This document shows, piece by piece, positions 11,252 through 42,570 of a stretch of 64,000 bases of DNA; the first letter of the stretch is position 1, and each line of letters starts with the position of its first letter. The notes beneath the pieces were generated by a model. That model had not been told where the DNA came from. It searched no databases and saw only the letters and a list, made by a program, of their open reading frames with translations. Source of the DNA: Opitutales bacterium (lineage in GTDB: Bacteria; Verrucomicrobiota; Verrucomicrobiia; Opitutales; JABSRG01); assembly GCA_028280845.1 (NCBI GenBank), contig JANQKZ010000011.1, positions 1 to 64,000 on the forward strand, read 5' to 3'. The position numbers and the translations under genes were made by a program.

Positions 11252-11782
11252 ATGGCTCTCCCCAATCCAGAGGAACTAAACCCGGATCCCGGATCACGAA
11301 TCGCTGACCGCGCCTCCGGCTCCCTTCCCGACTGGCAAATCCAAACTATCGAAATTTTCGTCCGTACGGCGGACCTACTTGGTCTGCCCAAATCGATCGG
11401 CCAGGTCTACGGTCTCCTCTTTTGCACTGAAGAACCGCTTCCGCTCGACGCAATCAAGGATCGTCTCCAAATCTCCAAAGGGTCGACCTCCCAAGCCCTT
11501 AATACGCTCAAACGTTTGCGCGCCATTAAACCGGTCTTAATTTTAGGAGAACGACGAGACTATTATGAACCAGAACTTCAACTTCGCCGCCTTGTATCAG
11601 GCTTTCTAAATGAGCAGGTCATTCCACATTTGGACTCTGGTAAAGTGAGAATTCACGCAATAAAAACCCAAAAGGAAGAGGACATCCCCCCAAAATTACA
11701 AGAACGCCTCGACCGATTGAATGCCTGGAGGTCGCAATCTATAAAGCTCATCCCTATCATCACTAAATTCTTAGGAAAATGA
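11252..11782 (+). CDS. GbsR/MarR-like transcriptional regulator
   Basis: A 176-residue winged-helix protein. '[48 protein letters not shown]' at about residues 46-95 is a GbsR-type helix-turn-helix, followed by a wing containing 'GERRDYY'. It is first in the glycan locus and likely a local regulator; the palindromes at 10361-10398 are candidate operators. The first 25 residues are low-complexity and partly encoded by period-7 repeats ([10 protein letters not shown] at 11281-11308), so the true start may be later, although the ATG at 11252 is the first available. Ligand unknown. Confidence 0.75.
11281..11308. repeat. Period-7 array inside the regulator gene
   Basis: CCCGGAT, CCCGGAT, CACGAAT, CGCTGAC: four units in frame near the N-terminus, encoding PDPGSRIAD. 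The unit relates to the 'GAATCCC' array in the gene at 44.3 kb. Confidence 0.75.
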
Positions 11783-12101
11783 AAGGAACTCCCTTGGCCA
11801 GCGGGCCCGGAACCCACTTCCATCCCATCCCCTCGATTGTTAAACATGATTGGGAACTAGAGGAATCAAGGGTTGATTTGCTTAATCGGGGAACCGCCTG
11901 GTTAGACGCGGGCACTTACACTTCTCTCAACGAGGCATCTACATTCGTTCACGTCATCGAAGAGCTGCAGGGAACCAAGATCGGGGGCATTGAGGAGGAG
12001 CATATTATTCGGGCTTCATCGAACGCGAACAGGCGCTGAAATTAGCCGTGAACTACAAAAAATCCGGCTACGGAGTGTTTGGGAAACGGGTGGCAGGATA
12101 G
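11779..12101 (+). pseudogene. rfbA: C-terminal remnant of glucose-1-phosphate thymidylyltransferase (rfbA), frameshifted
   Basis: The frame from 11779 contains '[42 protein letters not shown]', which matches the RmlA/RfbA C-terminal region. After base 11997 the match continues in another frame (from 12000): [20 protein letters not shown] followed by KSGYGVFG, the typical RmlA tail, to a stop at 12099. Two bases stand where three are expected, so a single-base deletion has broken the frame. The nucleotide-binding N-terminal two-thirds is missing. It overlaps the regulator stop by 4 bases (ATGA). This is a relic of a former dTDP-sugar operon; an intact rfbA must lie elsewhere if the Fdt genes are active. 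Confidence 0.85.
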
Positions 12102-12127: not shown

Positions 12128-13324
12128 ATGAAACACTCGAAACCATACCTCATTCGTGAGAATGATGTTTCCTGTAATATCGGACGCCTTGACGAGGCGT
12201 GGGAGGGATCTCCTACCTTTCTCTATTTTTCTGGTAAAAGCGGCGTTCCTATTGATTGGTTGGAGACGAAAGTAGGTCTCATCGAAAATGAGTTCTCTGA
12301 GGGCCATTTTATCCTCCTCACCTCTGGTAGTACCGGCAGGCCAAAGCTTGTTGTCGGTCATCGGCGCCGGGCCGAGAGACTATGTGGTATTCTTCATGAA
12401 CTTCAGAGCAGTGAGCCTGTTAAGGAAGCTGTGTGTCTTCTCCCTCTAACCTACTGCTATTCTTTCGTTAACCAGTGGCTGTGGGCACGTCAGTTTGGAC
12501 GCTCCCTAATCATGACTCCAGGACTGTCTGAACCCGCTGAAATAAGGACTGCTTTAACACATACACGAGACGCAATGCTATGTTTGGTGGGAGCCCAAGT
12601 ACCTCTCCTGATCAGGCATTTTCCATCTGAGAGTTTTGCAGGAATAATTCGAGTGCATTTTGCTGGTGGCCGTTTCCCCCAAGAGAATCTTTCCAACATT
12701 AAGCGACTATTTCCGAATGCTGAGATCTATAATAATTACGGTTGTGCTGAAGCGATGCCAAGATTAACAATTCGACCTGCCAAGGCGAGTCCTGAAGCAT
12801 CGAACATTGGTAAGCCGTTGCCAGGAGTTGAGTTGAAGTCAGACGAACATAGTCGTATTCTGTTTCGCAGTGTCTTCGGCGCGGTCGCAATGATAGACGA
12901 TACAGGACTCTCTAGAATCGCAAATGACACATGGGTTCCAACTGGTGACTTGGGGCGACCTCTCGAAGATGGCCAATGGCAAATTCTTGGACGCTCGAAC
13001 GAGGTATTTAAGCGCTATGGGGAGAAGGTCTCTATTCCTCAGGTACTATCGACGGTAAGAGATCATTGGGACGGACAGGCGGATTGCTATCGCCAGGCTG
13101 ATCCTCAGGGGGAAGAAGGTTATGTTCTTGTATTATCTCCTATTCCGATAAATGAGGAGGTTCGGAAACTGCTGCGAAGGGTAGGTGGCGCTTTTTCTAG
13201 AGCTCATTGGCCACTGCGGGTCGAGGGGGTAACAAAAATGCCGTTGCTTCCTAATGGTAAGGTGGATCGGCAGCGACTTGCATCTAACGACAATGCTAGA
13301 ATTGTATGGCACCAAAGGTTGTAA
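12128..13324 (+). CDS. AMP-forming acyl ligase (ANL superfamily)
   Basis: A short (398-residue) adenylate-forming ligase. The P-loop LLTSGSTGRPK is at about residues 61-71. 'YNNYGCAEAMPRLT' is the adenine/acyl motif, 'WVPTGDLGR' the hinge-proximal Asp motif, and 'LPNGKVDRQRL' carries the C-terminal catalytic Lys. The N-terminal subdomain is much shorter than in acyl-CoA synthetases. The frame opens at 11990, but that part overlaps the rfbA remnant, so the ATG at 12128 is preferred. With an ACP immediately downstream, it probably adenylates a small carboxylic acid and loads it on that carrier. Confidence 0.85.
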   Translation: MKHSKPYLIRENDVSCNIGRLDEAWEGSPTFLYFSGKSGVPIDWLETKVGLIENEFSEGHFILLTSGSTGRPKLVVGHRRRAERLCGILHELQSSEPVKEAVCLLPLTYCYSFVNQWLWARQFGRSLIMTPGLSEPAEIRTALTHTRDAMLCLVGAQVPLLIRHFPSESFAGIIRVHFAGGRFPQENLSNIKRLFPNAEIYNNYGCAEAMPRLTIRPAKASPEASNIGKPLPGVELKSDEHSRILFRSVFGAVAMIDDTGLSRIANDTWVPTGDLGRPLEDGQWQILGRSNEVFKRYGEKVSIPQVLSTVRDHWDGQADCYRQADPQGEEGYVLVLSPIPINEEVRKLLRRVGGAFSRAHWPLRVEGVTKMPLLPNGKVDRQRLASNDNARIVWHQRL

Positions 13325-13327
13325 CTT

Positions 13328-13573
13328 ATGAATAACTACGATAAATTAAAAGAGTTGTTAGTAGATGTATTTCTTCTTTCAGAAGAAGAGTTCCGGTTTG
13401 ATTTAAAGCGCGAGGAGATTGCCACATGGGACTCGATGGGCACCGTATCTATGGCTGTTGGAGTTCAGGAAACATTTGGATACCACATGACCCCGGATGA
13501 GGCTGTAGGCGTCGCCGGTGTCGAGGATATCATTCGTATACTCGTAGAGAACGGGATTTCCTTTGAAGAGTAG
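13328..13573 (+). CDS. Acyl carrier protein
   Basis: An 81-residue carrier protein. The phosphopantetheine attachment site is Ser36 in WDSMGTV, followed by helix III 'MTPDEAVGVAGVEDIIRILVENG'. It starts 4 bases after the ligase and overlaps the next gene, so it is in the same transcript. It is not the fatty-acid ACP: sequence is divergent and the context is a glycan locus. It probably holds the acyl group activated by the upstream ligase. Confidence 0.88.
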   Translation: MNNYDKLKELLVDVFLLSEEEFRFDLKREEIATWDSMGTVSMAVGVQETFGYHMTPDEAVGVAGVEDIIRILVENGISFEE

Positions 13574-14492
13574 ACCGCCAGAGTATGATCTGCGCGAACT
13601 GCGCCAGCTCTCAAACCAAGCTGCCCTGTGGGTTACTCCGAGCGTGCGGGACACTGTCGAGGCGAGGTTAAGACTGCCAGTTCTTCCTGCTCTTGGGCCA
13701 TTGCCACCAGGAGTAAACACCGTTATTGTCGTTGGAGGTGGCACGCTGATTGACGAAGCAAAGTTCTGGCGGACTGAGAAAGCGCCGCAGATTAAACTAG
13801 TTGCTATTCCATCAATATGGGGGAGTGGCGCGGAAGTTTCTCCGATCGTAGTTTTAAATCGAGAGGAGAAAAAGAGCATCTTTACTGGCGAACAATATAT
13901 GCCTGATGCATATTGCTATTTTACTGAACTGGCAGAGAGCCTTAGCCCTCTTCAAGTTCGTTGCGCAATTGGAGACTGTTGGGCGCACGCTCTAGAGGCA
14001 TTTCTATCGCCTCTAGCTACGGACGAATTAAGGCAAGAGTTAGCTTCACTCGTCATCGAGATGCTTGAAACTCCGTTTGGAGTCGACCCTGCCTGGTTCA
14101 AGCATAGTGCACGGGCTTGCTCCGCCCAGGCAGATTCCAGTGTTGGACTTGTTCATGGTATTGCACATGTCTTAGAGTGCAAACTTAGGGCGCACGACCC
14201 AGTTTCCGATTGGGGACACGCGAAGCTATGTTCGTTGTTTTTATTTCCCGTTATGCATTTCAACAAAGATGCCTCTGCTAAGTGGAAAAATTTGATGGAC
14301 CAGTATGGGTTACCCGAGGACAGAATTCTAGACGTGTTGGCCAACTTGTTTGAAATCAATGCGTATCGGGCAACCCTGGCACATCTATTTGAACAGTGGC
14401 ATCTTATAATACGTGATCCGTGTTCAAGAACCAACTCGACACTGGTCCGCCCAAGCAGCCTTAGTTACTTCATGGAGGAACAGTTTTTGTGA
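13563..14492 (+). CDS. Iron-containing alcohol dehydrogenase family protein
   Basis: A 309-residue protein of the Fe-ADH/dehydroquinate-synthase-like fold. The dinucleotide loop VVGGGTLIDEAKFW is at about residues 57-70. Metal-ligand motifs are visible as 'GDCWAHALE' (Asp and His) and 'VHGIAHVLE...WGHAKL' (His). It is shorter than usual (about 380) at the N-terminus. The start is a TTG inside the ACP gene (11-base overlap). Expected role: NAD(P)H-dependent reduction of an aldehyde or keto group, possibly the aldehyde released by the LuxC-like protein. Substrate unknown. Confidence 0.8.
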   Translation: MKSRPPEYDLRELRQLSNQAALWVTPSVRDTVEARLRLPVLPALGPLPPGVNTVIVVGGGTLIDEAKFWRTEKAPQIKLVAIPSIWGSGAEVSPIVVLNREEKKSIFTGEQYMPDAYCYFTELAESLSPLQVRCAIGDCWAHALEAFLSPLATDELRQELASLVIEMLETPFGVDPAWFKHSARACSAQADSSVGLVHGIAHVLECKLRAHDPVSDWGHAKLCSLFLFPVMHFNKDASAKWKNLMDQYGLPEDRILDVLANLFEINAYRATLAHLFEQWHLIIRDPCSRTNSTLVRPSSLSYFMEEQFL

Positions 14493-15538
14493 TCCATCCC
14501 AATCGCGTTAGTCCGTATGCCGCACGCAATGAGTCCGCTTTTCTTCGAGAGATGAACGAACTCAGCCATCATCATCTTGCCGGGTGTGAGCTTTATCGAC
14601 ACGCATGGCCTGATTGGGACGGAGCAAAGGACTTGGCCTCATTGCCTTACCTTCACGTTGGCGTCTTTAAACATGCAGAGTTTCGGACTCAGGCGGATGG
14701 CATTCGGTTTGAAAGAACGCTCCGGTCTTCTTCCACCACAGGCAGCAGTGCGAGTCAGATCTATTTGGATTCAAAAAGCAGTGCGCTTCAAGCGGCGAGT
14801 TCCTCCGCAATCCTTGAGGATTTTATTGGAGCTGAAAAGCGTCCGTTGCTGATTGTAGATAGTTCACGTTCTTTGATCGACAGGTCGGGGGTTTCTGCAA
14901 GGATCGCAGCTGCCATGAGCCTGCGTCCACTGGCTAGTGACATGGTTTTCCTCCTTGGAGATGGAAATGATCCATCCACTATGGTATGGGACCGGCTAAG
15001 GTGTACCCTGGAGAAACATGATACAGTTATAGTATATGGATTTACATGGATCCTCTGGCTTGCTTGGGGAAACGCAAACAAGCCACCCGATATCGAGGAA
15101 CTCTTGGCAGAGAAAACGATTTTTTTCGTTCATAGCGGTGGATGGAAGAAGCTTGATGCGATTAAAGTCGGGCGAGCCCAGTTTGATACGGCTCTTCTCC
15201 ACAGTCTATCAGATGACTCTCGAGTAATCGACTATTATGGTCTAGTAGAGCAGGTGGGGATGGTTTACCCTTTATGCCGATGCGGAGCCCGACATGTACC
15301 TGCCTGGGGAGCTGTCCTCGTGCGTGATCCATGGACGCTTGAAGTGCTTCCAGACGGGGAGGTAGGCATGTTGCAATTGATGAACACACTCGCATGGGGA
15401 GCTCCATACCACAATGTCCTGACAGAGGATTTAGGTCGAGTCGTTCCCGGCCAATGCAGTGAAGGTAGAAACGGGACACGTTTTGAATTGGTTGGACGAA
15501 TCCCTAAATCCGAAATCAGAGGATGTGCCAATGTCTAG
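14489..15538 (+). CDS. LuxE-type acyl-protein synthetase
   Basis: A 349-residue protein of the LuxE family, which activates a carboxylate as acyl-AMP and passes the acyl group to an enzyme cysteine and then to LuxC. The SSSTTGSSAS segment at about residues 81-90 is the adenylate P-loop counterpart, and 'YYGLVEQVGMVYP' the following motif. Cys346, four residues from the C-terminus in RGCANV, is placed like the acyl-accepting cysteine of LuxE. The GTG start overlaps the previous stop (GTGA), with GGAGGA 9 bases before it. No luxAB is present, so light production is not implied. Confidence 0.85.
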   Translation: MIHPNRVSPYAARNESAFLREMNELSHHHLAGCELYRHAWPDWDGAKDLASLPYLHVGVFKHAEFRTQADGIRFERTLRSSSTTGSSASQIYLDSKSSALQAASSSAILEDFIGAEKRPLLIVDSSRSLIDRSGVSARIAAAMSLRPLASDMVFLLGDGNDPSTMVWDRLRCTLEKHDTVIVYGFTWILWLAWGNANKPPDIEELLAEKTIFFVHSGGWKKLDAIKVGRAQFDTALLHSLSDDSRVIDYYGLVEQVGMVYPLCRCGARHVPAWGAVLVRDPWTLEVLPDGEVGMLQLMNTLAWGAPYHNVLTEDLGRVVPGQCSEGRNGTRFELVGRIPKSEIRGCANV

Positions 15539-16709
15539 CTACCTCCATCAGTTCCGGGCTCCCCGAGTGAGCACAGTAGTAGCCCTTAGATTTCCACTTG
15601 ACGAAGTTGTTGATGATTGGAGTGGGCTGCGTTCAGTAATGATTCGTGAGATTCCCGAGGAATTTACGCGGGACGAATGGGCCTATCTTGTTTCGTTTCT
15701 TGGATCTGAGAACCTCATGGGGGTTTTTGAAACAACTTTTGGTGAATCTGTCTCTTTAGGCTCATCTCGCTCAAGCATAATGGCACAGCCATGTGGTCAA
15801 GTTGCGGTATGGTTGCCCAATAATGTGAGCCTGCTTGGACCATTGGTCCTCATTTTGCTGAGTTTGACTGGCAATCCGATGCGACTTAAGGGGGGGCAGG
15901 ATTCGGAAGATCTCACCGGTGTCTTTTTACGATATGCATTAAAGCATCTTAACCAGGGAAAGCTTCTCAATTATCTTCAGCATCAGGTTAAGCATGAGGT
16001 GTTTGGTCGTGAAGACCCACGTTCAGCGGTGTTCGCCGCGGAGTCCCAAGTAAGAATTGTGTTCGGTTCAGATGAAGCTGCCCGTGCCATCCATAACTTG
16101 CCCCATCCTCTTGGCAGTAAAGCTTACTCATTTATTGATCGTCGCTCCGAGGCTTGGATCGAAAAGTCCTGTATCTCAGATCAACTCATTCTCGACCTGC
16201 TCAAGGTTTTTGCGATCTATGGGCAAGCTGGTTGCACATCGCCGCGTCGGGTGGTTCTCCTTGGTGCCTCAGTTGACGATGCTGTCCAGTTCACTGGGGA
16301 GCTGTCCAAAATATGGATTGCTATGAAGCGGCCTGAACCCGCCATGCATATCGCCTCGAATAACATCATGGGACAGCAGTTGGCCAATGCACTTGGCTGG
16401 AAATCCAGATTGAGCGAAAAACACGGAGCGGTTTTTGCAGCCGGTAATTACTTGCTCCCCGAATGTCCAATGCCTATGGGGTTAATGGTTGTCGCGGCGA
16501 CTGCCGAGGAGGCGCGCAACAGGTTGCCTACAAACATACAGACAATCGGAAGTGCATTTGTTGATCCTGAGGCTGAATCTTGGCTACGTTTTTTTGCTGG
16601 CACCCGGGTGAAGCGTATCGTTCCCCTCTCTTCCATGCACCACTTCGGCCCAGTCTGGGACGGGGAAGAATTTTGGAGAGGCTGTTTTGATCTCATCTCC
16701 CTGACATAG
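15531..16709 (+). CDS. LuxC-type acyl-CoA/acyl-enzyme reductase
   Basis: A 392-residue NADPH-dependent reductase of the LuxC branch of the aldehyde dehydrogenase superfamily; it reduces an activated acyl group to the aldehyde. The catalytic cysteine is Cys235 in YGQAGCTSPRR. 'QPCGQVAVWLPNNVSLLGPLVLILLSLTGNP' is the nucleotide-fold region of the family, and 'IVPLSSMHHFGPVWDGEEFW' the conserved tail. The ATG at 15531 (8-base overlap with luxE-like) is preferred over one at 15459, which would overlap by 80 bases. It completes a LuxC/LuxE pair. Confidence 0.86.
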   Translation: MSSYLHQFRAPRVSTVVALRFPLDEVVDDWSGLRSVMIREIPEEFTRDEWAYLVSFLGSENLMGVFETTFGESVSLGSSRSSIMAQPCGQVAVWLPNNVSLLGPLVLILLSLTGNPMRLKGGQDSEDLTGVFLRYALKHLNQGKLLNYLQHQVKHEVFGREDPRSAVFAAESQVRIVFGSDEAARAIHNLPHPLGSKAYSFIDRRSEAWIEKSCISDQLILDLLKVFAIYGQAGCTSPRRVVLLGASVDDAVQFTGELSKIWIAMKRPEPAMHIASNNIMGQQLANALGWKSRLSEKHGAVFAAGNYLLPECPMPMGLMVVAATAEEARNRLPTNIQTIGSAFVDPEAESWLRFFAGTRVKRIVPLSSMHHFGPVWDGEEFWRGCFDLISLT

Positions 16710-16754: not shown

Positions 16755-17327
16755 ATGAAACATAGTTTTCATATGGAAAAATTCGGTGTGCGCCTCCGCC
16801 CGGTGGAGATTACTGATGCAGCCCGGATCGTTGAGTTAAGGAACAGTCCGCATGCACGGGGTTTTTTGGGGGACAGTGCAACAACTGTGGGGGATCAGGA
16901 GAAATGGCTGATGGCCTACTTCGAAAGGCGTGGAGATTACTGTTTCATGATTGAAACTCTCTCAGGCAATTCCCCTGTCGGCATGTTAGGTGTTTATAAC
17001 ATAGAGTCGGAGCAGGGTGAGATGGGTCGTTGGATCGTGCAGCGCGGTGCCATGGTGGCTCCGGCCAGTGCGCTATTGGCCTGGTCATTTTGCTTTGAGC
17101 GGCTAGGTCTGAAGTCAGTGGTGGGGCTGGTCGTTGAAACAAACAAGGAAGTTCTGTCCTTTCACCGGAGATTGGGCTGCGAAGAGGTGGGCATACATTC
17201 TCAAACACGGGTGATTGGAGGAGAATCGGTTCGCATGATTGAGTTCCTAATCACGCAAGATCTCTGGCCGAGCATAAAGCGTGATTTGGAGAAGTACGCT
17301 GAGATGGCACAGTTGTTTTTTCCTTAA
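16755..17327 (+). CDS. GNAT-family N-acetyltransferase
   Basis: A 190-residue GNAT protein: 'VRLRPVEITDAARIVELRNSPHARGFLG' opens the fold, 'SPVGMLGVYNI' is strand 4, 'GRWIV' precedes the acetyl-CoA loop, and 'VETNKEVLSFHRRLGCEEVG' is the C-terminal motif. It resembles sugar N-acetyltransferases of the PseH type and RimJ/RimL-like enzymes. In this place it could acetylate, or transfer an ACP-bound acyl group to, an amino sugar. The specific substrate is not visible. Confidence 0.8.
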   Translation: MKHSFHMEKFGVRLRPVEITDAARIVELRNSPHARGFLGDSATTVGDQEKWLMAYFERRGDYCFMIETLSGNSPVGMLGVYNIESEQGEMGRWIVQRGAMVAPASALLAWSFCFERLGLKSVVGLVVETNKEVLSFHRRLGCEEVGIHSQTRVIGGESVRMIEFLITQDLWPSIKRDLEKYAEMAQLFFP

Positions 17328-17406
17328 ATCAGATAAGAGGTCAGTCGATTTCAAGTGATACATCACTTTCTAATATGTCAGGCTTTTTTTCGCGTTCAAA
17401 AAACTT

Positions 17407-18186
17407 ATGAAAAAAGAAAATAAAGATTATTCAAAAGTAGGGAACGAATTTACATCTCGAAAAGAGCAAGAAATCGAGGCCGGTAATGTACTGCGTGCTA
17501 AACTACTTGAGACACTTCCCCATATGGGATCGAAATGGGACATACACTTGCCCCTGTTTTTAACCCCTGCATCGCTTGCAAGACTGCTTTGGCTGGATAC
17601 GGTTTACAAAGAAGCGATTCATATTCCTGGTTGTTTGGTAGAATTCGGTTCACAGTGGGGAGCTTCGATTAACACGTTTTGCTTGCTTAAACAAATCCAC
17701 GAACCGTGGAATGCGGGGAGGCGGTTATTATCTTTCTCCCTATTTGAAGAAGGATTTTTATCGGTTGACGAACAAGACGGTAACATCTCCGAGGCAGGTG
17801 ATTACCGAGTTTCCAAAGGGTGGGACGAAGAACTTCGGAATATACTGTATCTGCACTCGCAACGCAGTCCCTTAGGTGCTGGTTCTGGGGTTGAGGTTAT
17901 CCCTGGTGATGCTGTGGTGAACTTCAGAGAGTATTTGGAATCCAACCCCGAACTCATGCTTTCCCATGTTCATTTCGATATGGATTTATACAAGCCAACA
18001 CGTGATTTAATTGAGATCTGCCTAAAACGAATGCCAAAAGGTGGTATAATGATATTTGATGAATTAAATTGTCCGTCGTTTCCCGGAGAGACAACCGCCC
18101 TGGACGAAGTAATTGGCATAAACCAACTAAAACTTATCAAATCCAAGTTCCAGCCATATTCCGCATACGCTGTAGTAGGGAGTTGA
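17407..18186 (+). CDS. TylF/MycF-type O-methyltransferase
   Basis: A 259-residue SAM-dependent methyltransferase of the macrocin-O-methyltransferase (TylF) family, whose members methylate sugar hydroxyls. 'GCLVEFGSQWGASINTFC' is motif I, and 'HVHFDMDLYKPTRDLIEICLKRMPKGGIMIFDELNCPSFPGE' carries the Mg-binding acidic residues. It probably methylates a deoxysugar on a nucleotide or in the chain. The surrounding DNA is more AT-rich than the 0-10 kb region. Confidence 0.85.
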   Translation: MKKENKDYSKVGNEFTSRKEQEIEAGNVLRAKLLETLPHMGSKWDIHLPLFLTPASLARLLWLDTVYKEAIHIPGCLVEFGSQWGASINTFCLLKQIHEPWNAGRRLLSFSLFEEGFLSVDEQDGNISEAGDYRVSKGWDEELRNILYLHSQRSPLGAGSGVEVIPGDAVVNFREYLESNPELMLSHVHFDMDLYKPTRDLIEICLKRMPKGGIMIFDELNCPSFPGETTALDEVIGINQLKLIKSKFQPYSAYAVVGS

Positions 18187-18361
18187 ACCGCTAAGAAATA
18201 CATACAGCAGAAATGTAAACTTATAGTCTTAGAACTTTGACAAGTATTCTCAATCTCCCGAAGTACACAGAAGAATAGTCCAACCGTTAAGCAGTTGCTA
18301 CTCAATAGGGCTACCTGTTCTCTAAAAGCTCAACCGGGGTTTTGCCTACCTGACAGCCACC

Positions 18362-18787
18362 ATGCCAAACAACGTTAACGACTGTGCGCTGGTCAACTTT
18401 CCCAAAATTCAAGATCCTCGAGGGAACCTCACTTTTATCGAAGAAGGAACCCACCTCCCTTTCGACATCGAAAGGGTATACTGGATTTATGATGTCCCCG
18501 GTGGCGAGGAGCGGGGAGGTCACGCATTTAAGCAACAGCAAGAAGTAATCATTGCACTGTCGGGCAGCTTCGACGTTGTTTTGAATGATGGCAAATCTGA
18601 ACAGGTTTTCCATCTCAATCGAGCCTATTATGGCCTATACGTCACTCGAATGGTCTGGAGGGAAATGCGCAATTTTTCCACCAATTCCGTAGCCTTCGTT
18701 TTGGCAGATACCGAATACAATCCATTGGATTATATTTATCACTTTGAGGAATTTCTAGAGTTCCGGGAGAGCGAGGGGAAGCATTAG
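18362..18787 (+). CDS. FdtA/QdtA-like dTDP-4-keto-6-deoxyhexose 3,4-ketoisomerase
   Basis: A 141-residue single-domain cupin of the WxcM-like family. 'LVNFPKIQDPRGNLTFIEEGTHLPFDIERVYWIYDVPGGEERGGHAFKQQQEVIIALSGSFDVVLNDG' contains the family's GGHAF/GGHAH motif with the active-site His, and 'RAYYGLYVTRMVWREM' the second block. The enzyme moves the keto group from C4 to C3 before transamination. A divergent second copy follows at once, then the aminotransferase. Confidence 0.88.
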   Translation: MPNNVNDCALVNFPKIQDPRGNLTFIEEGTHLPFDIERVYWIYDVPGGEERGGHAFKQQQEVIIALSGSFDVVLNDGKSEQVFHLNRAYYGLYVTRMVWREMRNFSTNSVAFVLADTEYNPLDYIYHFEEFLEFRESEGKH

Positions 18788-18797
18788 GAGGAACAAT

Positions 18798-19196
18798 CTG
18801 TATAAAAAGATCGAGCTGCCGAAGGTATATGACAGGAAAGGCGCACTGTCGTACGTCTACAACAATATACAGATACCCTTTAAGGTTAGACGAATCTACT
18901 ATCTATATGATGTCCCCGGAGGAGCAGATCGGGGAGGCCATGCCCACAAAAAACTGGAACAGCTTGTAATCGCGATTATGGGAAGTTTCGATCTCGTTTT
19001 AGATGACGGGCAGGACAAAGAGCGCATTCACATGAATCGCTCCTACTACGGCGTATACATTAAGAACAAAATATGGAGAGAACTCGATAATTTCTCATCT
19101 GGTTCCATTTGCATGGTCTTGGCGTCCGATGTTTATGACGAGGATGACTACATTCGCGATTACCGGGAGTTTTTAACTTACCCCGCAGACTGTTAG
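18798..19196 (+). CDS. Second FdtA/QdtA-like sugar 3,4-ketoisomerase, CTG start
   Basis: A 132-residue paralog of the preceding cupin ([52 protein letters not shown]). The only in-frame ATG (18978) lies in the middle of the conserved domain and would delete the GGHAH motif. The homology begins at [17 protein letters not shown], encoded from a CTG at 18798, and a perfect AGGAGG lies at 18786-18791, six bases before it. The preceding in-frame stop is at 18756, and the only other candidate is ATT at 18783. I therefore assign a CTG start. Confidence 0.8.
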
Positions 19197-19225
19197 CTCT
19201 CCAAATCACTAATCCCCAAAATACT

Positions 19226-20332
19226 ATGATACCTTTTTTTGACCTAAAGATTGAAGACAGTCCATACATAGATGAGCTGAAAGCTAGAATCTCAAAAGTA
19301 GTAGATTCCGGTTGGTATGTTCTCGGGAAAGAGCTCGAAGAATTCGAAAACAGTTTTTCGGAATATTGCGGCACAAGATACACCATTGGAACCGGAAACG
19401 GACTCGATGCGTTAACACTGATATTTGAGGCCTACAAAGTTCTGGAAATCCTTCATTCCGGAGATGAAGTGTTAGTACCAAGTAACTCATTTATAGCTTC
19501 TGCCCTTGGCGTCACAAAGGCCGGATTGGTCCCAAATTTTGTGGATATTGATCCCGATACATTTCTCATCTCATTGAATAGCGCTGAGGAACGGATGACG
19601 GCAAAAACTAAAGCCATAATGCCAGTCCATCTTTATGGACGTGCGTGTAACATGGATGCAGTTTGGAAGTTTGCCAATAAGCACAACCTTCTTGTAATTG
19701 AAGATGCCGCTCAAGCTCATGGGGCTTTCTGGAACGAAAAGCGAGCAGGAAACTTAGGGAATGCAGCAGCCTTTAGTTTTTATCCTGCAAAAAACTTAGG
19801 GGCATTTGGTGATGCCGGGGCAGTAACTACAAATGATCCTGATCTGGCCCATACAATTAGAAAGCTCCGCAACTACGGCTGTGAGTCCAAATACGTAAAT
19901 GAATACAAAGGGACCAATAGTCGACTGGATGAAATGCAGGCAGCAGTTTTAAATACAAAACTAAAATATTTGGATCAGAATACATCTGGTCGAAGATTAA
20001 TAGCAGAGCTCTACCAGGATGGTATTAAAAATAGTAATCTGCAAACACCCAACATTCCAATTCAAAAAGAAAGTCATTCCTGGCACTTATACGTCATACG
20101 CACATCCAATCGCGCAGGATTACAAGAACATTTAAATAAAAATAAAATTGGATGGAGCATCCACTATCCAATTCCCATTCACAAACAAAATGCTTTTAAT
20201 GACGCCCCTGATGTTTATCTACCGACAACAGAAGAATTCTCCCAACAGATTATATCCTTACCCATTTCCTCAAAACTAGCGCACTCTCATACAAATAGGA
20301 TAATTGAAGTCTTAAATGACTGGAGTGACTAA
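19226..20332 (+). CDS. DegT/DnrJ/EryC1 sugar aminotransferase (FdtB/QdtB-like)
   Basis: A 368-residue PLP enzyme that aminates a nucleotide-linked keto sugar. The PLP lysine is Lys189 in [14 protein letters not shown]. '[17 protein letters not shown]' and '[34 protein letters not shown]' are standard. Placed right after two FdtA-like isomerases, it should convert a dTDP-3-keto-6-deoxyhexose into the 3-amino sugar (Fuc3N or Qui3N). An acetyltransferase of the usual FdtC type is not adjacent; the GNAT gene at 16755 may substitute. Confidence 0.92.
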
Positions 20333-20366: not shown

Positions 20367-21923
20367 GTGCTGAAACAGGAAAAAAGTAAAAATCTGGAGA
20401 AGGACAACCTTACAGGTAGTCCAATAAAATCGTATGAGAGCATCTTAAAATCTACCTCAATTATTGGAGGCTCCCAATTCCTAATTGTATTAATTGGAAT
20501 GGTGAAGGTTAAATTTACAGCGGTATTATTAGGCCCGTTGGGAATAGGACTAGCAAGTGCCCTAGGATCAATAAACCAAACAGGCACTACATTATTTGGA
20601 TTTGGTTTGGCCAATAGTGGGATACGCGAAATCTCATCTTCACTTGGGGAAAATGACAGTATTAGAGTTTCGAAATTAGCGACGACGCTTTATTTTAGCT
20701 CACTCATTACTGGCCTATTTGGAATGATAGCGGTCGTGCTATTTTCTTCTTGGCTTAGTATTTGGGTGTTTGGCACCCCTAAATACGAAAAACTAATATC
20801 AATATTATCCATCTGTATTTTTTTAGAAAACTTATCCGGGGCACAATTAGCAGTACTTCAGGGGCATAGAAAAATCGTTGCACTGGCGAGTATTCGGCTG
20901 AAAACTAGATTTTTAGCAACAGTGCTGGCTGTGGTATACTTTTACCATTGGGGTCTAGAAGGAATAGTCCCAGCAATGCTAACCACGGCCATCCTCAAGT
21001 GGATAATTTCATTATTCTTTTTAAATAAAATTGCCCTCGAACCCACAACCCTGAGATTAAAAGAATTCTTAATCAATACCAGGGGACTAGCAAAATTAGG
21101 GTTAGCGCTGGTTTGGAACACCCTTCTCATAAGCCTGGTAGCAGTTATTACCAGGAGTTTGGTAAACCACGAAGGAGGTCTTCATTCTCTAGGAATTTAT
21201 AGTGCGGCATACGGAATTTCAGCCATGCTGGTCAATTTTGTTCTTCAGGCCATGGCCACGGACTATTACCCGAGGCTATCAAGATACTCCTCGGATAACA
21301 AAAGTATGTCACAATTAGTTAATGAACAATTTGAAATCGGAATTCTACTAGCTCTTCCGATTATATTATTTGCCACTTCATTTTCTGAGCTTTTAATCAA
21401 TATTCTTTATACCCATGAATTTCAAGAGGCTCATGGCCTCCTGAGCATTTTTATCATTGGTAGTTTTTTCCGGGTCTTACAGTGGCCATTAGGGTATATA
21501 GCACTCGCCAAAAAGAAAGCCGCACTTTTTGCGATTACTGAGACAACTTTCCAAATCCTACATCTACTACTAATTTACTTAGGAATTAAAACAATGGGCA
21601 TAGTTGGCGTGGCAATAGCCTATCCTGTTGTTTATCTTATTGCTTTCCCCATTTCAATTAAAATTGGGAATATTTTGATCGGTTTTAATTTTAACTACTC
21701 CACAAGACTACTATTAGGGAAAAGTATCCTAGCGGTTTTAATTTTGCTAACATTGTCCAGAATAGGTAATGACTTATTTTCTCTATTAGCATCGCTGTGC
21801 GTAAGCACTTGTTTTTCCATCATTTGTTTGAGCGAATTGTTAAGAAGGTTACCAGAAACTCACCCCCTGAATAAGTTAACCACAAAAATCTTTCCTTTCT
21901 TAAATCCAACAACAAAAATTTAA
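20367..21923 (+). CDS. Wzx-like polysaccharide flippase
   Basis: A 518-residue polytopic membrane protein with about 12-14 hydrophobic segments, of the MOP/PST exporter superfamily. The N-terminal part 'STSIIGGSQFLIVLIGMVKVKFTAVLLGPLGIGLASALGSI' is typical of O-antigen translocases. It would flip the undecaprenyl-linked repeat unit to the periplasm. The start is a GTG; the first 20 residues are polar. The gene is markedly AT-rich (20-25 kb block), as Wzx/Wzy-region genes often are. Confidence 0.9.
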   Translation: MLKQEKSKNLEKDNLTGSPIKSYESILKSTSIIGGSQFLIVLIGMVKVKFTAVLLGPLGIGLASALGSINQTGTTLFGFGLANSGIREISSSLGENDSIRVSKLATTLYFSSLITGLFGMIAVVLFSSWLSIWVFGTPKYEKLISILSICIFLENLSGAQLAVLQGHRKIVALASIRLKTRFLATVLAVVYFYHWGLEGIVPAMLTTAILKWIISLFFLNKIALEPTTLRLKEFLINTRGLAKLGLALVWNTLLISLVAVITRSLVNHEGGLHSLGIYSAAYGISAMLVNFVLQAMATDYYPRLSRYSSDNKSMSQLVNEQFEIGILLALPIILFATSFSELLINILYTHEFQEAHGLLSIFIIGSFFRVLQWPLGYIALAKKKAALFAITETTFQILHLLLIYLGIKTMGIVGVAIAYPVVYLIAFPISIKIGNILIGFNFNYSTRLLLGKSILAVLILLTLSRIGNDLFSLLASLCVSTCFSIICLSELLRRLPETHPLNKLTTKIFPFLNPTTKI

Positions 21924-38348: not shown

Positions 38349-38630
38349 ATGATTCCGAGTATAATTATTAAATCGATCGAAGGTCTGAATAGCTCCTGGG
38401 GCTTGGAGTATTTCCAGGAATTGAATGCTGACACGAGGCTCTTTCACCCCGATTCCCCCATGACCAGCATGCAGCTGGTCCAGTTGGTAGCCCGTCTCGA
38501 GGAGGTCGTCGAAGAGGAAACCGGACAAGTCATCACACTAGCTGATGAACATGCCATGAGCCAAAAACGGTCCCCTTTCCTCACCATTGGCTCCCTTTCC
38601 GAATATATCACTTCCCTTCTCACTCCGTAA
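38349..38630 (+). CDS. Acyl carrier protein-like protein
   Basis: A 93-residue carrier-protein-like fold. The candidate phosphopantetheine serine is Ser40 in MTSMQLVQLVARLEEVVEEETG; the usual Asp before it is Thr here, which lowers confidence in modification. A helix-III-like segment ends with 'LTIGSLSEYITSLL'. It is followed by an SDR reductase and an AMP ligase, mirroring the first ACP module at 12-16.7 kb. Confidence 0.7.
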   Translation: MIPSIIIKSIEGLNSSWGLEYFQELNADTRLFHPDSPMTSMQLVQLVARLEEVVEEETGQVITLADEHAMSQKRSPFLTIGSLSEYITSLLTP

Positions 38631-38699
38631 CTGGATCCATCTGCGTGCCGGTAATTACAATCTTTGCGATAATCGGGCAGAAGTTCCTTTCAGGTTAAT

Positions 38700-38722
38700 G
38701 CGTGTCCATTCGTGGTTTAAAA
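38700..38722. repeat. 'GTGTCCATTCGTGGTTTAAA' phrase abutting the SDR start
   Basis: A dispersed phrase directly before the ATG at 38723; it contains the GTG (38702) that would otherwise extend the reading frame by seven residues. Confidence 0.55.
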
Positions 38723-39415
38723 ATGATCTTCATTATTTCAGGAAGCCGTAAAGGCATTGGCAGGGAGCTGGTTGAACACTATCTCTCTTCAGGTCACACT
38801 GTCATTGGTTGCAGTCGGGGACTCACCGAGCTGGCACATCCCAACTATACCCACTTCGAGCTCGATGTATCGGATGAGCCTGCCGTCGCGTCTATGGTTA
38901 AGAAAACAGCGAGGGCCCATGGCCGCATTGACGTCCTGATCAACAATGCGGGTATTGCTACCATGAACCCGGTTGCACTCACTCCCCTGACTACGGCAAA
39001 GTCCATCTTCAACACCAACTTTCATGGCACATTCCTTCTCTCCCGGGAAGTGGCCAAGGTCATGCTAAAACAGGAACGCGGCCGTATCATTAATCTCTCG
39101 ACCGTTGCCCATCCGTTAAAATTGGAAGGAGAAGCCCTCTATGCCGCCAGCAAGGCAGCTGTAGAATCGTTCACCCAAGTTCAGGCTCGCGAGCTCGGCC
39201 CAACGGGGATCACGGTCAATGCGATCGGTCCAACCCCCGTTCTCACGGATTTAGTCAAAGGTGTGCCGAAAGAGAAAATGGATTCCCTCCTTCAACGACA
39301 GGCCATAGTACGATTCGGATCGATAGAAGATATCACGAATGTGATCGATTTTTTTATCAGACCAACAAGCGATTTTATCACCGGCCAGGTTCTCTACCTT
39401 GGCGGTATTTCTTAA
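38723..39415 (+). CDS. Short-chain dehydrogenase/reductase (FabG-like)
   Basis: A 230-residue classical SDR. 'IISGSRKGIGRELVEHYL' is the cofactor loop (Thr-Gly replaced by Ser-Gly), 'INNAG' follows, and the catalytic Ser, Tyr and Lys lie in 'INLSTVAHPLKLEGEALYAASKAAVESF'. It probably reduces a 3-keto group on the ACP-bound acyl chain, as FabG does. The start at 38723 is preferred because the Rossmann strand begins there. Confidence 0.88.
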   Translation: MIFIISGSRKGIGRELVEHYLSSGHTVIGCSRGLTELAHPNYTHFELDVSDEPAVASMVKKTARAHGRIDVLINNAGIATMNPVALTPLTTAKSIFNTNFHGTFLLSREVAKVMLKQERGRIINLSTVAHPLKLEGEALYAASKAAVESFTQVQARELGPTGITVNAIGPTPVLTDLVKGVPKEKMDSLLQRQAIVRFGSIEDITNVIDFFIRPTSDFITGQVLYLGGIS

Positions 39416-39494
39416 TTCAATTGACAAGAGGAAAAGGAGACCGGTGAGCGCTCAGCAAACTATGGTATGTCCAGCGGTGAAATTATTAAACTAA

Positions 39495-39530
39495 CCTTTC
39501 GCATTATTCGTGTCTTTCGCAGTTTCAAAA
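39495..39530. repeat. 'TTCGTGTCTTTCGCAGTTTC' phrase overlapping the ligase start
   Basis: A dispersed phrase that here contains the GTG (39510) used as the start of the ligase frame. It may have supplied the start codon and the first residues (MSFAVSKL). Confidence 0.5.
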
Positions 39531-40859
39531 CTAAAAGACCTGTTTCTTAAAAGAGGTAACCGGCTTTTCCTCATTCATGGGGATCAGGAAGTCACCTACG
39601 GGGAATTTACTTCGCATTGGGAGCATGCCGCTGAGGAAAGCAGAAGGGCAGGAATTCAACCCTTTGAACCCATCGCCATCCTGAGTGACTATTCCCCGGA
39701 AGCCCTCGCCCATTTCTTTGCGCTAGCTGAAAACCGGAATATCGTCGTACCTATCGCAAATCATTCTGACGAAGAGACGAAAAAACGGTTGGACGTGGCA
39801 AAGTGCAGGTGGACCTGGTCCTCCCAGAACAGCTTTCAGAAAAATGAAACCCACCGGTCTTACCGGCATCATCGACTCTATCGTCAGTTAACTGATGAAA
39901 ACCGGCCTGGCCTCGTTCTCTTCAGTAGTGGCACGGCTGGAGAGCCCAAAGCGATGCTTCACGACCAGGATAGACTCCTCACCCGGTATCCGCCGAAACC
40001 GGAAAAAGACCTCCGGCAACTCCTCTTTCTCTTCTTCGACCATATTGGTGGCTTCGATACCCTGTTTCGAGCCATCGCCAATGGCAGCACCTTAGTAATC
40101 CCAAAGGACCGGTCGCCTGAATCGGTGGCCCGCCTCATCGCAACTCACCAGATTACAATACTTCCTACGACCCCCACTTTCCTCAACCTCATACTGCTTC
40201 ACCAGTTAAATGAGACTTATGATCTCTCTTCATTAAAAGTCATAGCTTTTGGAGCGGAACCCATGCCGACAAGCCTGTTAAATCGTTTGCGAGAGGCCTT
40301 CCCAAAGGTAGATTTTCAACAAAAATTCGGCACCTCGGAAACCGGAGCGGTCCAGGTTATATCTGCGGTCAATGATGAAATCGCATTCAAAATTATGGAT
40401 CATACCGTGGAGGCAAAAATCGAAGAGGGAGAACTTTATCTTAAATCTTCATCCTCCGTTTTAGGATACCTCAACCACCCAGATCCGTTCACCGATGACA
40501 GGTGGTTTCCCACAGGAGATTTGGTGGAGGAACAAGCCGAAGGAGCCATTCGAATACTGGGACGCAAAACAGAAATCATCAATGTTGGCGGAAACAAAGT
40601 GCACCCGATCGAAATCGAAGACGTTCTTTTGAATCATCATGCGGTGATCGATGCACGAGTCTATGGGAAGGCCAATACCCTGACTGGCCAATGGGTAGAG
40701 GCCGAGGTCATTTTGGACCCGGATCGAGAGACCGTACCTTCAAAACTGGATTTGAAAAAACACTGTTCAGACAGCCTGGACGCCTACAAAGTACCTGCGA
40801 AAATTCATTTTGTGGACCAGGTTTCACAAACTGCTAATTTCAAAAAGAAGCGTAGTTAA
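39510..40859 (+). CDS. AMP-forming acyl ligase (ANL superfamily)
   Basis: A 449-residue adenylating ligase. The P-loop is VLFSSGTAGEPKAML; 'FQQKFGTSETGAVQV' is the adenine motif, 'WFPTGDLVEE' the Asp motif, and 'KTEIINVGGNKVHPIEIEDVL' the hinge. The C-terminal catalytic Lys region ends at 'TANFKKKRS'. It probably loads a carboxylic acid onto the ACP at 38349. The GTG start lies in a dispersed repeat, so the first residues are uncertain. Confidence 0.86.
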   Translation: MSFAVSKLKDLFLKRGNRLFLIHGDQEVTYGEFTSHWEHAAEESRRAGIQPFEPIAILSDYSPEALAHFFALAENRNIVVPIANHSDEETKKRLDVAKCRWTWSSQNSFQKNETHRSYRHHRLYRQLTDENRPGLVLFSSGTAGEPKAMLHDQDRLLTRYPPKPEKDLRQLLFLFFDHIGGFDTLFRAIANGSTLVIPKDRSPESVARLIATHQITILPTTPTFLNLILLHQLNETYDLSSLKVIAFGAEPMPTSLLNRLREAFPKVDFQQKFGTSETGAVQVISAVNDEIAFKIMDHTVEAKIEEGELYLKSSSSVLGYLNHPDPFTDDRWFPTGDLVEEQAEGAIRILGRKTEIINVGGNKVHPIEIEDVLLNHHAVIDARVYGKANTLTGQWVEAEVILDPDRETVPSKLDLKKHCSDSLDAYKVPAKIHFVDQVSQTANFKKKRS

Positions 40860-41010
40860 CATTAACGGTGAATAACTACGGGAATTCCGATAACCCCTGT
40901 AATCGTAGTTCTCGCCTTTACCGGAAGTCGCCTTGTTTGTTTCTTTCTCAAACTGAATTTATCTCTGTCAAGCAGGGCAATCTGGTCATAAAAGGTCCAT
41001 AGTGGCCTCG

Positions 41011-41042
41011 GTAATATCCGCGACCTTCGTGGTATATTAAAC
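41011..41042. repeat. 'CCGCGACCTTCGTGGTATAT' phrase before the pglD-like start
   Basis: A dispersed phrase ending three bases before the ATG at 41046, member of the TTCGTG family. Confidence 0.5.
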
Positions 41043-41045
41043 GAC

Positions 41046-41687
41046 ATGAAAAACTTAATTATAGTTGGAGCTGGCGGTTTTGGGCGGGAAGTCTACGGCT
41101 ACGCGCAGGACATGCCAGAGTGTGGCCGTGAATGGCAACTTAAGGGCTTCCTTGATGATAACCCTCAGGCACTGGAGGGGGTTGATGACATCCGACATCC
41201 TATCCTCTCTCCAATTCGGGAATACCACCCCACCAGCGACGACCTCTTCGCCAACGGCATTGGTCAGCCCGGAATCCGGAAAGAATTGGTCAATATCGTC
41301 CTCTCAAAGGGAGCTGTATTTACTAATCTCATTCACCCGTCAGTCTACATTGGGCGCAATGTAAAAATGGGGACTGGATGTGTTCTTGCCCCCAATGTCG
41401 TTCTAACTGCCGACGCTCTGATCGGAGATCATGTGTGCCTCAATGTTGGCACATGCATCGGCCATGATGCCCGCTTGGGTAATTATATTCAGACCAGTAA
41501 TCTATGCGATATCACTGGCTATGTAAGTATTAAGGAAGGGGTATCCATGGGAAGTCGCTCTACAATCCTCCCCTCTCTCACCGTCGGGGAATGGGCAAAG
41601 GTTGGACCGGGATCCATCGTTGTAAACAATGTTGATCCACACACAACCGTCATGGGAAACCCAGCAAAGCGACTCCCGGCAAGCTGA
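41046..41687 (+). CDS. pglD: PglD/NeuD-type sugar O/N-acetyltransferase
   Basis: A 213-residue protein. An N-terminal Rossmann-like UDP-sugar domain (VGAGGFGREVYGYA) is followed by a left-handed beta-helix of hexapeptide repeats (IHPSVYIGRNVKMGTGCVLAPNVVLTADALIGDHVCLNVGTCIGHDARLGNYI), with the catalytic His in 'GHDARLG'. PglD N-acetylates the C4 amine of UDP-4-amino sugar to give UDP-diNAcBac. PglE lies one gene downstream and PglF further on, supporting the assignment. It is convergent with epsI, 13 bases apart. Confidence 0.88.
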   Translation: MKNLIIVGAGGFGREVYGYAQDMPECGREWQLKGFLDDNPQALEGVDDIRHPILSPIREYHPTSDDLFANGIGQPGIRKELVNIVLSKGAVFTNLIHPSVYIGRNVKMGTGCVLAPNVVLTADALIGDHVCLNVGTCIGHDARLGNYIQTSNLCDITGYVSIKEGVSMGSRSTILPSLTVGEWAKVGPGSIVVNNVDPHTTVMGNPAKRLPAS

Positions 41688-41700
41688 GCCCAACATGAAC

Positions 41701-42444
41701 TCAAATTATAAACCGATAGGTCCAATCCTGAGGATCCTCCCCATCCGGCACCTTTAAATTGGACATTATAACGACGGCCTCCATCAATTGCTGAAACCCA
41801 GGGTCTGTCCAGAGACTCTCTAGAGGCTGGTTGGCTGAAATCCTGACAAAAAGCTGTTCTGGTTTTTGACTCAACCCAAACCGGAAATGATCAGTCAGCA
41901 TGTTCCACCGGTCCCACATACCAACCTTATTATTCTGCTTAAACACTTTGCCATCAATCAAATGCCAATAGGCTACATGTTGAGCGTTTCCCTGCGTCTC
42001 CAGGACCCGGACTTCAGCCGACTTGAGTACGCCATTTTGAAAGGGGAAAAAAACGTTATTTCGGATTTCGGTACATTCCCACCCATTCAGAACCCAGCAG
42101 ACCTCCGGCGTATGGGAACCTACCTGGCGGACAGGCATTTGCAGTGGTTCCCAATAGGCCACATAAAGAATAACCTCGGTGTTTCCCTTTGAATAAACAC
42201 GGGATAAATGATCATTCAGGTTGAGTTTGTCCAACACTCTCCCTTTGAGCTCCTCGGTCTGAGCAATGGGCAGGTCCTTACACTGCCAACCCGGGATTTC
42301 CCTGGGAATAAAGGATTCTAACGGCTCAGTTTTTGTGTAGTGGACAGGGTGAAAGGTGGCATCCCAAAGCTGCGCTCCAATAGCAACACTGAGGACCAAT
42401 ATGCAGGAAACGATCAAAAAGAAAGCTGTCTTTTTTCGAAGCAC
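41701..42444 (-). CDS. epsI: EpsI family exosortase-associated protein
   Basis: A 247-residue protein with an N-terminal membrane anchor (about residues 7-27) and the EpsI domain. 'FIPREIPGWQ' near residue 50 and 'SHTPEVCWVLNGWECTE' near 110-125 match conserved EpsI blocks. EpsI proteins usually accompany an exosortase of the PEP-CTERM type system and polysaccharide genes. No exosortase is found in the window. It is the only minus-strand gene between 11 and 49 kb and so is transcribed apart from the glycan operon. Confidence 0.85.
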   Translation of the reverse strand: MLRKKTAFFLIVSCILVLSVAIGAQLWDATFHPVHYTKTEPLESFIPREIPGWQCKDLPIAQTEELKGRVLDKLNLNDHLSRVYSKGNTEVILYVAYWEPLQMPVRQVGSHTPEVCWVLNGWECTEIRNNVFFPFQNGVLKSAEVRVLETQGNAQHVAYWHLIDGKVFKQNNKVGMWDRWNMLTDHFRFGLSQKPEQLFVRISANQPLESLWTDPGFQQLMEAVVIMSNLKVPDGEDPQDWTYRFII

Positions 42445-42570
42445 TAGAGAAGGATTAATCGTAGAAATTGAATTTTCAATGCAGAACCACTAATCCGCGC
42501 CTATAGAAACTTATCCCTTGTGAATCCCGCCTTCATCTTTAGTGGATATGAGGGCTTAATTAGTGGTTTA

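What the first reader, a model, noticed from the sequence alone, without database searches (positions are those of the whole stretch)
12128..16709. LuxC/LuxE acyl-reduction module with dedicated ACP, AMP ligase and iron-type dehydrogenase inside a glycan locus
Five tightly coupled genes encode an adenylating ligase, an ACP (Ser36), an Fe-ADH-family protein, a LuxE-type acyl-protein synthetase (Cys346 near the C-terminus) and a LuxC-type reductase (Cys235). No luciferase genes are present. Together they could load a carboxylic acid on the ACP, reduce it to an aldehyde or alcohol, and hand it to a sugar. Acylated amino sugars made with ACPs are known (for example in Pseudomonas flagellin glycans), but reduction of the acyl group by a LuxC/LuxE pair within such a pathway would be an uncommon chemistry.
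Basis: partly seen in the sequence, partly recalled or inferred. Interest (0 to 1): 0.72.

Follow-up and report, generated by a model that had tools for sequence, protein, structure and literature searches.

The report
Acyl-making cassette for surface amino sugars
Five neighbouring genes, conserved in the same order in distantly related bacteria, most likely build a small hydroxylated acid that is then attached to an amino sugar of a cell-surface polysaccharide; a pathway with the same five activities is already described for the cholera bacterium's O1 antigen, so this is an unreported variant of a known kind and not new chemistry.

Summary
Window 12128-16709 holds an adenylating ligase, an ACP (Ser36), a compact Fe-ADH, a LuxE (Cys346) and a LuxC (Cys235), tightly coupled and inside a glycan locus. 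The order ligase-ACP-ADH-LuxE-LuxC was found in all 8 related loci fetched, from five bacterial groups, and in one more genome of the window's own order; catalytic residues are invariant. The set is already explained in outline: Vibrio cholerae O1 makes tetronate (2,4-dihydroxybutanoate) for acylating perosamine with the same activities, and Aeromonas and enterobacterial flagellin-glycan islands carry ACP/SDR/ligase/LuxE/LuxC sets. The window's set is a separate clade (LuxE support 100/100) with its own gene order, short ligase and short ADH. Best explanation: one carboxylate of a small diacid is reduced by LuxE/LuxC/ADH to an alcohol, the other is loaded on the ACP, and a GNAT N-acyltransferase (16755-17327, nearest solved relative FdhC) puts the acyl on dTDP-Fuc3N or dTDP-Qui3N, whose genes follow directly. 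Sister loci pair the cassette with WecE and a WecD-fold acyltransferase. Ether or alkyl transfer to the sugar is not supported. Substrate and product are inferred.

The parts
12128..13324 (+). AMP-forming acyl ligase, N-terminally short (398 aa); adenylation motifs TSGSTGRPK (65-73) and PNGKVDR (Lys378) kept
   Evidence: PF00501 E 2.8e-18; 44-53% identical copies in 8 loci with these residues largely invariant, Lys378 in all
13328..13573 (+). Acyl carrier protein, Ser36 in WDSMG
   Evidence: NCBIfam PRK05350 E 2.3e-5, below cut-off; 56-68% identity in 8 loci, Ser36 invariant
13563..14492 (+). Compact iron-type alcohol dehydrogenase (309 aa), predicted to reduce the aldehyde to an alcohol
   Evidence: PF00465 E 2e-9; model pLDDT 93.9, Foldseek E about 1e-13 to AdhE and FucO; D138 H142 H198 H202 H219 invariant
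14489..15538 (+). LuxE-type acyl-protein synthetase, Cys346 near the C-terminus
   Evidence: PF04443 131 bits; profile matches solved LuxE 7xc6_E, E 2.9e-17, Gly-Cys aligned
15531..16709 (+). LuxC-type acyl reductase (392 aa from ATG 15531), Cys235 in GCTSP
   Evidence: PF05893 E 2.8e-12; Cys235 invariant in nine sequences
16755..17327 (+). GNAT N-acyltransferase, proposed to transfer the finished acyl from the ACP to the 3-amino sugar
   Evidence: PF13302; only PDB sequence match FdhC 5kta, E 1e-10; FdhC is described as the 3-hydroxybutanoyltransferase for Fuc3N (PMC4869667)
17407..18186 (+). Probable SAM-dependent methyltransferase, role open
   Evidence: weak PF13578 E 0.0013 and TylF E 0.015, both below cut-off
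18362..18787 (+). FdtA/QdtA-type dTDP-4-keto-6-deoxyhexose 3,4-ketoisomerase
   Evidence: PF05523 169 bits; PDB FdtA 2pa7 E 2.3e-30
18798..19196 (+). Second FdtA/QdtA-type ketoisomerase; best start is CTG at 18798 behind AGGAGG 18786-18791
   Evidence: PDB 5tpu E 8e-35, FdtA 2pa7 E 4.8e-33, matches from residue 2-5; sequence
19226..20332 (+). DegT-family aminotransferase of the QdtB kind (3-amino-3,6-dideoxyhexose)
   Evidence: PF01041 368 bits; PDB 5u1z E 9e-111 and QdtB 3frk E 3e-99
20367..21923 (+). Wzx-type flippase; start of the polysaccharide assembly genes (glycosyltransferases, Wzy-like, sugar-phosphate transferase downstream)
   Evidence: PF13440 and PF01943

Best explanation
The five genes are an acyl-supply cassette for N-acylation of a nucleotide-linked amino sugar. 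The set has two independent ATP-dependent carboxylate activators (LuxE and the ligase), which fits a small dicarboxylic acid such as malate or succinate. LuxE activates one carboxylate and carries it on Cys346, LuxC takes it on Cys235 and reduces it to an aldehyde, and the Fe-ADH reduces that to an alcohol. The ligase activates the other carboxylate and loads the hydroxy acid on Ser36 of the ACP. The GNAT protein at 16755-17327 then transfers the acyl to the 3-amino group of dTDP-Fuc3N or dTDP-Qui3N, made from dTDP-4-keto-6-deoxyglucose (rmlA and rmlB elsewhere in the genome) by the FdtA-type isomerases and the aminotransferase at 19226-20332. Shown by sequence: gene content, conserved order, active-site residues, neighbouring amino-sugar and acyltransferase genes. 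Inferred: the order of the reactions, the identity of the acid, the acceptor sugar, and that the GNAT protein uses this ACP.
For: Gene identities and coupling. Order conserved in 8 of 8 loci and in L018. Catalytic residues invariant. GNAT matches FdhC, with the function described in PMC4869667. Aminotransferase matches QdtB-type structures, isomerases match FdtA/QdtA. Intact rmlB and rmlA on contig C13. In six other loci the gene behind luxC is one family whose model matches TDP-fucosamine acetyltransferase WecD, and L005, L006, L007 and L018 carry WecE-type aminotransferases over a curated cut-off. V. cholerae O1 has ACP, ligase, Fe-ADH, LuxE/LuxC and acetyltransferase as its tetronate genes. 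In two genomes of the window's own order the same activities lie as ACP-ligase-ADH-LuxE::LuxC with a PglD-type acyltransferase upstream.
Against: No substrate or product is known for this clade. The ACP and ADH are divergent (ACP below every curated cut-off, ADH about 70 aa short). The tetronate pathway itself was described as putative. The V. cholerae proteins could not be compared directly because no named V. cholerae record could be fetched. Acyltransferases and amino-sugar genes are common in polysaccharide loci, so adjacency alone is weak in the window, although the sixth gene recurs in six loci.
Confidence: 0.68

Rival explanations
1. Load first, reduce later: the ligase puts a dicarboxylic acid on the ACP and LuxE/LuxC/ADH reduce the free end while it sits on the ACP. 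The final product is the same as in the best explanation; only the order of steps differs.
For: The ACP gene lies between ligase and ADH in all type C loci, which would suit carrier-bound reduction.
Against: Luminous-bacterium LuxE/LuxC act on free or enzyme-bound fatty acids (general knowledge); nothing here distinguishes the order.
Confidence: 0.3
2. One reading: the acyl loaded on the ACP is itself reduced to an aldehyde or alcohol, which is joined to a sugar as an alkyl or ether group or by reductive amination.
For: LuxC-type enzymes make aldehydes from acyl thioesters, and the ADH could make an alcohol (families).
Against: LuxE already activates its own acid, so a separate ligase and ACP would be redundant; adjacent genes are N-acyltransferases and amino-sugar enzymes, here and in relatives; no alkyl- or ether-forming enzyme was recognised.
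Confidence: 0.08
3. A fatty-aldehyde module of the luminescence type, or one making a long-chain lipid group on the glycan, as the flagellin papers suggested for their sets ('liposugar').
For: LuxE and LuxC family membership; PMC7874193 and PMC4875605 propose a liposugar.
Against: No luciferase or LuxD-type gene beside the cassette; GNAT and WecD-type partners usually take short acyls (general knowledge); the nearest solved acyltransferase, FdhC, is described as a 3-hydroxybutanoyltransferase (PMC4869667).
Confidence: 0.12

Closest known systems
Vibrio cholerae O1 tetronate genes rfbKLMNO (VC0248-VC0252; wbeL = rfbL)
   Same: ACP, acyl ligase, iron-type ADH, LuxE plus LuxC activities and an acyltransferase in one O-antigen locus, feeding N-acylation of an amino sugar (PMC3441752, PMC9201469, PMC12208996)
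   Different: There the acyl-protein synthase and reductase are annotated as one protein (RfbN), the ligase is 471 aa, and the acceptor is perosamine. Here the order is ligase-ACP-ADH-LuxE-LuxC with separate LuxE and LuxC, a 398-aa ligase and a 309-aa ADH, and the acceptor genes are of the Fuc3N/Qui3N kind.
Aeromonas group II and enterobacterial flagellin glycosylation islands (ACP, 3-oxoacyl-ACP reductase, AMP synthetase, LuxE, LuxC)
   Same: Same ligase, ACP, LuxE and LuxC functions with one alcohol-forming dehydrogenase in a glycan island (PMC7874193, PMC4875605)
   Different: Dehydrogenase is an SDR, not an Fe-ADH; order ACP-SDR-ligase-LuxE-LuxC in the look-alike loci examined here, whose LuxE proteins fall outside the window's clade.
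FdtA/FdtB/FdhC and QdtA/QdtB/QdhC pathways (3-hydroxybutanoyl-Fuc3N and -Qui3N)
   Same: Ketoisomerase, aminotransferase and GNAT N-acyltransferase types match the genes at 16755-20332
   Different: In those pathways no dedicated LuxE/LuxC cassette making the acyl donor was found described; here one lies directly upstream.
LuxC/LuxE fatty-acid reductase of luminous bacteria
   Same: Same two families and active-site cysteines
   Different: No luciferase or LuxD partner; extra ligase, ACP and ADH; glycan setting.

Membership tests
V. cholerae O1-type tetronate (RfbKLMNO) pathway | ACP, ligase, Fe-ADH, LuxE, LuxC activities together in a surface-glycan locus | tested here: met
   V. cholerae annotation
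V. cholerae O1-type tetronate (RfbKLMNO) pathway | Gene order ACP-ligase-ADH and joint LuxE-LuxC protein | tested here: not met
   Window and nine relatives are ligase-ACP-ADH-LuxE-LuxC, unfused; the fused form is seen in L019 and L020
V. cholerae O1-type tetronate (RfbKLMNO) pathway | Sequence clade with the RfbN LuxE domain | tested here: inconclusive
   RfbN itself could not be fetched; window LuxE is a separate clade from the look-alike fused proteins of L019 and L020
V. cholerae O1-type tetronate (RfbKLMNO) pathway | Product 3-deoxy-L-glycero-tetronate on perosamine | not testable with these tools
   No chemistry available; acceptor genes here are nearer QdtB and FdtA types than perosamine synthase
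Flagellin-island cassette (ACP, SDR, ligase, LuxE, LuxC) | SDR dehydrogenase between ACP and ligase | tested here: not met
   Fe-ADH instead; order differs
LuxE acyl-protein synthetase | Family match and C-terminal acyl-accepting Cys | tested here: met
   PF04443 131 bits; Cys346 invariant and aligned with 7xc6 LuxE; below the NCBIfam luminescence equivalog cut-off
LuxC acyl reductase | Family match and active-site Cys | tested here: met
   PF05893 E 2.8e-12, over cut-off; Cys235 invariant; no PDB sequence match
Luminescence lux system | luxAB and luxD beside luxC and luxE | tested here: not met
   Only unlinked family members on other contigs
Fe-ADH | Metal ligands and fold | tested here: met
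   D138 H142 H198 H219 and H202 invariant (assignment to FucO ligands from general knowledge); fold match to FucO and AdhE
FdhC-type N-acyltransferase | Sequence match to FdhC | tested here: met
   5kta E 1e-10, only PDB hit
FdhC-type N-acyltransferase | Transfer of a hydroxyacyl group to dTDP-Fuc3N | not testable with these tools
   Needs purified protein and substrates

The most novel reading that the evidence does not exclude
The type C cassette does chemistry different from the tetronate route: the reduced acyl (aldehyde or alcohol) is itself what is joined to the sugar, or the clade makes an acyl group not yet seen in any glycan, shared across several bacterial phyla.
Probability: 0.12. 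Interest if true: 0.6.

Novelty: new variant of a known kind. Interest (0 to 1): 0.36.

Why it matters
It shows that the cholera-O1 type of acyl supply is one of at least three cassette architectures built from the same functions, spread through distant bacteria and paired with different amino sugars. If the window's clade is confirmed, its small size and the direct FdhC- or WecD-type partner make the long-putative reduce-and-load route testable with a few purified proteins, and would let glycan substituents be predicted from genomes.

Tried and rejected
A direct sequence comparison with V. cholerae RfbK-N was not possible: the whole-genome collection is unnamed and the one named scan did not return Vibrio; a class-wide sample of Gammaproteobacteria gave, besides the starting locus, three SDR-type cassettes and one partial LuxE match. 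PDB search for LuxC, single and profile, gave nothing at E 0.01. The ORF first taken as a sixth gene of the fused cassette in L019 (11288-12013) matched no family and lies over an ORF of nearly the same extent on the other strand, so it was dropped. Viral contigs gave no relative and phages one partial match, so phage carriage was rejected. Promoter and terminator scans were at shuffle level and are not used. Luminescence was rejected. A paper search for a described type C cassette found none, though the library lacks most subscription journals. Telling FdtA-like (galacto) from QdtA-like (gluco) isomerases by residues recalled from memory gave mixed signs, so the acceptor is left as Fuc3N or Qui3N.
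Full report
OBSERVATION. The ligase start at ATG 12128 is reasonable inside a longer TTG ORF from 11990. The genes overlap or lie 3 nt apart. GC of the cassette is 0.493, between the flanking chromosome (0.536-0.556) and the downstream glycan locus (0.449).

MORE THAN CHANCE. A scan of 84,980 species genomes with the LuxE protein returned eight loci, from Gammaproteobacteria, Planctomycetota, Chloroflexi, Bacteriovoracaceae and Burkholderiales. All eight have ligase-ACP-ADH-LuxE-LuxC in that order on one strand; a ninth, L018, is in a genome of the window's own order. Ser36 of the ACP, Cys346 of LuxE, Cys235 of LuxC (259 in the longer ORF), Lys378 of the ligase and the Fe-ADH residues D138, H142, H198, H202, H219 are invariant. 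LuxE Cys346 aligns with the Gly-Cys near the end of the solved LuxE 7xc6. The ADH is about 70 residues shorter than FucO, yet models well (pLDDT 93.9) and matches AdhE and FucO by fold. In a sample of 388 genomes of the phylum, five had a LuxE of this kind or a cousin, so it is a rare accessory set.

THREE ARCHITECTURES. Related loci fall into three forms. Type A, in L019 and L020 (same order as the window's genome), is ACP-ligase-ADH-LuxE::LuxC fusion with a PglD-type acyltransferase upstream. Type B, in L011, L012, L021, L027, L028, L029 and a rearranged L010, has ACP, SDR, ligase, LuxE and LuxC. Type C is the window and its nine relatives. A LuxE tree puts type C in one clade with 100/100 support, A likewise 100/99, B 80/95 (the tree warns that long branches meet). 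The dehydrogenase differs (Fe-ADH or SDR) while ligase, ACP, LuxE and LuxC are constant, which suggests one overall conversion reached with exchangeable dehydrogenases (inference).

WHAT IT FEEDS. Directly behind LuxC is a GNAT protein whose only PDB sequence match is FdhC (5kta, E 1e-10); FdhC is described as the 3-hydroxybutanoyltransferase that acts on Fuc3N (PMC4869667). Then, after a probable methyltransferase, come two FdtA/QdtA-type isomerases and an aminotransferase nearest QdtB-type structures, then a Wzx-type flippase and glycosyltransferases. Intact rmlB and rmlA lie on contig C13. In L002, L003, L005, L006, L009 and L018 the gene behind LuxC belongs to one family without a Pfam name; its model (pLDDT 86) matches TDP-fucosamine acetyltransferase WecD best (E 7.5e-11, TM 0.66/0.74). 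L005, L006, L007 and L018 carry WecE-type aminotransferases over a curated cut-off. So the cassette is paired with N-acyltransferases of dTDP-amino sugars, probably 3-amino here and 4-amino there.

MECHANISM. LuxE activates acids by itself, so a separate ligase and ACP make sense if the substrate has two carboxylates: one reduced to an alcohol by LuxE, LuxC and ADH, the other loaded on the ACP and given to the amino sugar. This is the logic of tetronate (2,4-dihydroxybutanoate) in V. cholerae O1. The conserved order and residues are shown; substrate, product, reaction order and acyl-ACP use by the GNAT protein are inferred.

KNOWN OR NEW. V. cholerae O1 tetronate genes are VC0248-VC0252 (PMC3441752): RfbK carrier protein and RfbL ligase for 2,4-dihydroxybutanoate (PMC12208996), VC0250 iron-containing alcohol dehydrogenase, VC0251 acyl protein synthase/acyl-CoA reductase RfbN, VC0252 acetyltransferase (PMC9201469). 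The original 1995 pathway paper (Morona et al., Gene 166:19-31) was seen only as a citation. Aeromonas group II islands and enterobacterial flagellin islands carry ACP, 3-oxoacyl-ACP reductase, AMP synthetase, LuxE and LuxC (PMC7874193, PMC4875605). The described kind therefore covers this set. What is unreported, as far as the held library shows, is the type C form, with its own order, short ligase, short ADH and its pairing with FdhC-like or WecD-fold transferases. It fails two defining features of the V. cholerae arrangement (order, joint LuxE-LuxC protein), so it is not filed as that pathway, only as working like it.

VERDICT. Observation confirmed; interpretation partly supported; new variant of a known kind; interest moderate.

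Noticed in passing
window 11779-12039: Remnant of an rmlA gene (C-terminal part, profile positions 208-252 of 286, E 1.9e-10) directly upstream of the cassette, behind a MarR-like gene at 11252-11782; suggests recombination at this locus edge.
   Followed up: partly
window 18786-19196: Second FdtA-type gene has no ATG, GTG or TTG start at its true N-terminus; the frame is intact from CTG 18798, 6 nt behind AGGAGG. Likely CTG start.
   Followed up: partly
window 38349-41687: A second possible acyl set in the same locus: small ACP-like ORF (38349-38630, no Pfam support), FabG-like SDR (38702-39415), acyl ligase (39510-40859) and NeuD/PglD-type acyltransferase (41046-41687), followed by a LegC-family aminotransferase (42520-43698), without LuxE or LuxC.
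   Followed up: partly
window 41701-42444 (- strand): DUF3485 protein, a family linked (from general knowledge) with exosortase/EpsI systems, on the opposite strand inside the locus.
   Followed up: no
L002:4680-5114, L003:10182-10874, L005:10191-10937, L006:10185-10934, L009:10185-10874, L018:7598-8359(-): Unnamed protein family behind type C LuxC genes, WecD-like GNAT by predicted fold, no Pfam or NCBIfam match.
   Followed up: yes
own genome G000:C22:211934-212542: LuxD-family (PF02273) match, 72 bits, inside a 568-aa open frame, unlinked to the cassette; the family rings in none of 14 control genomes.
   Followed up: no
phage record MT835565.1 12388-12783: A phage record from human faecal samples with a partial LuxE-like match (32% over 131 residues, E 2e-12).
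   Followed up: no
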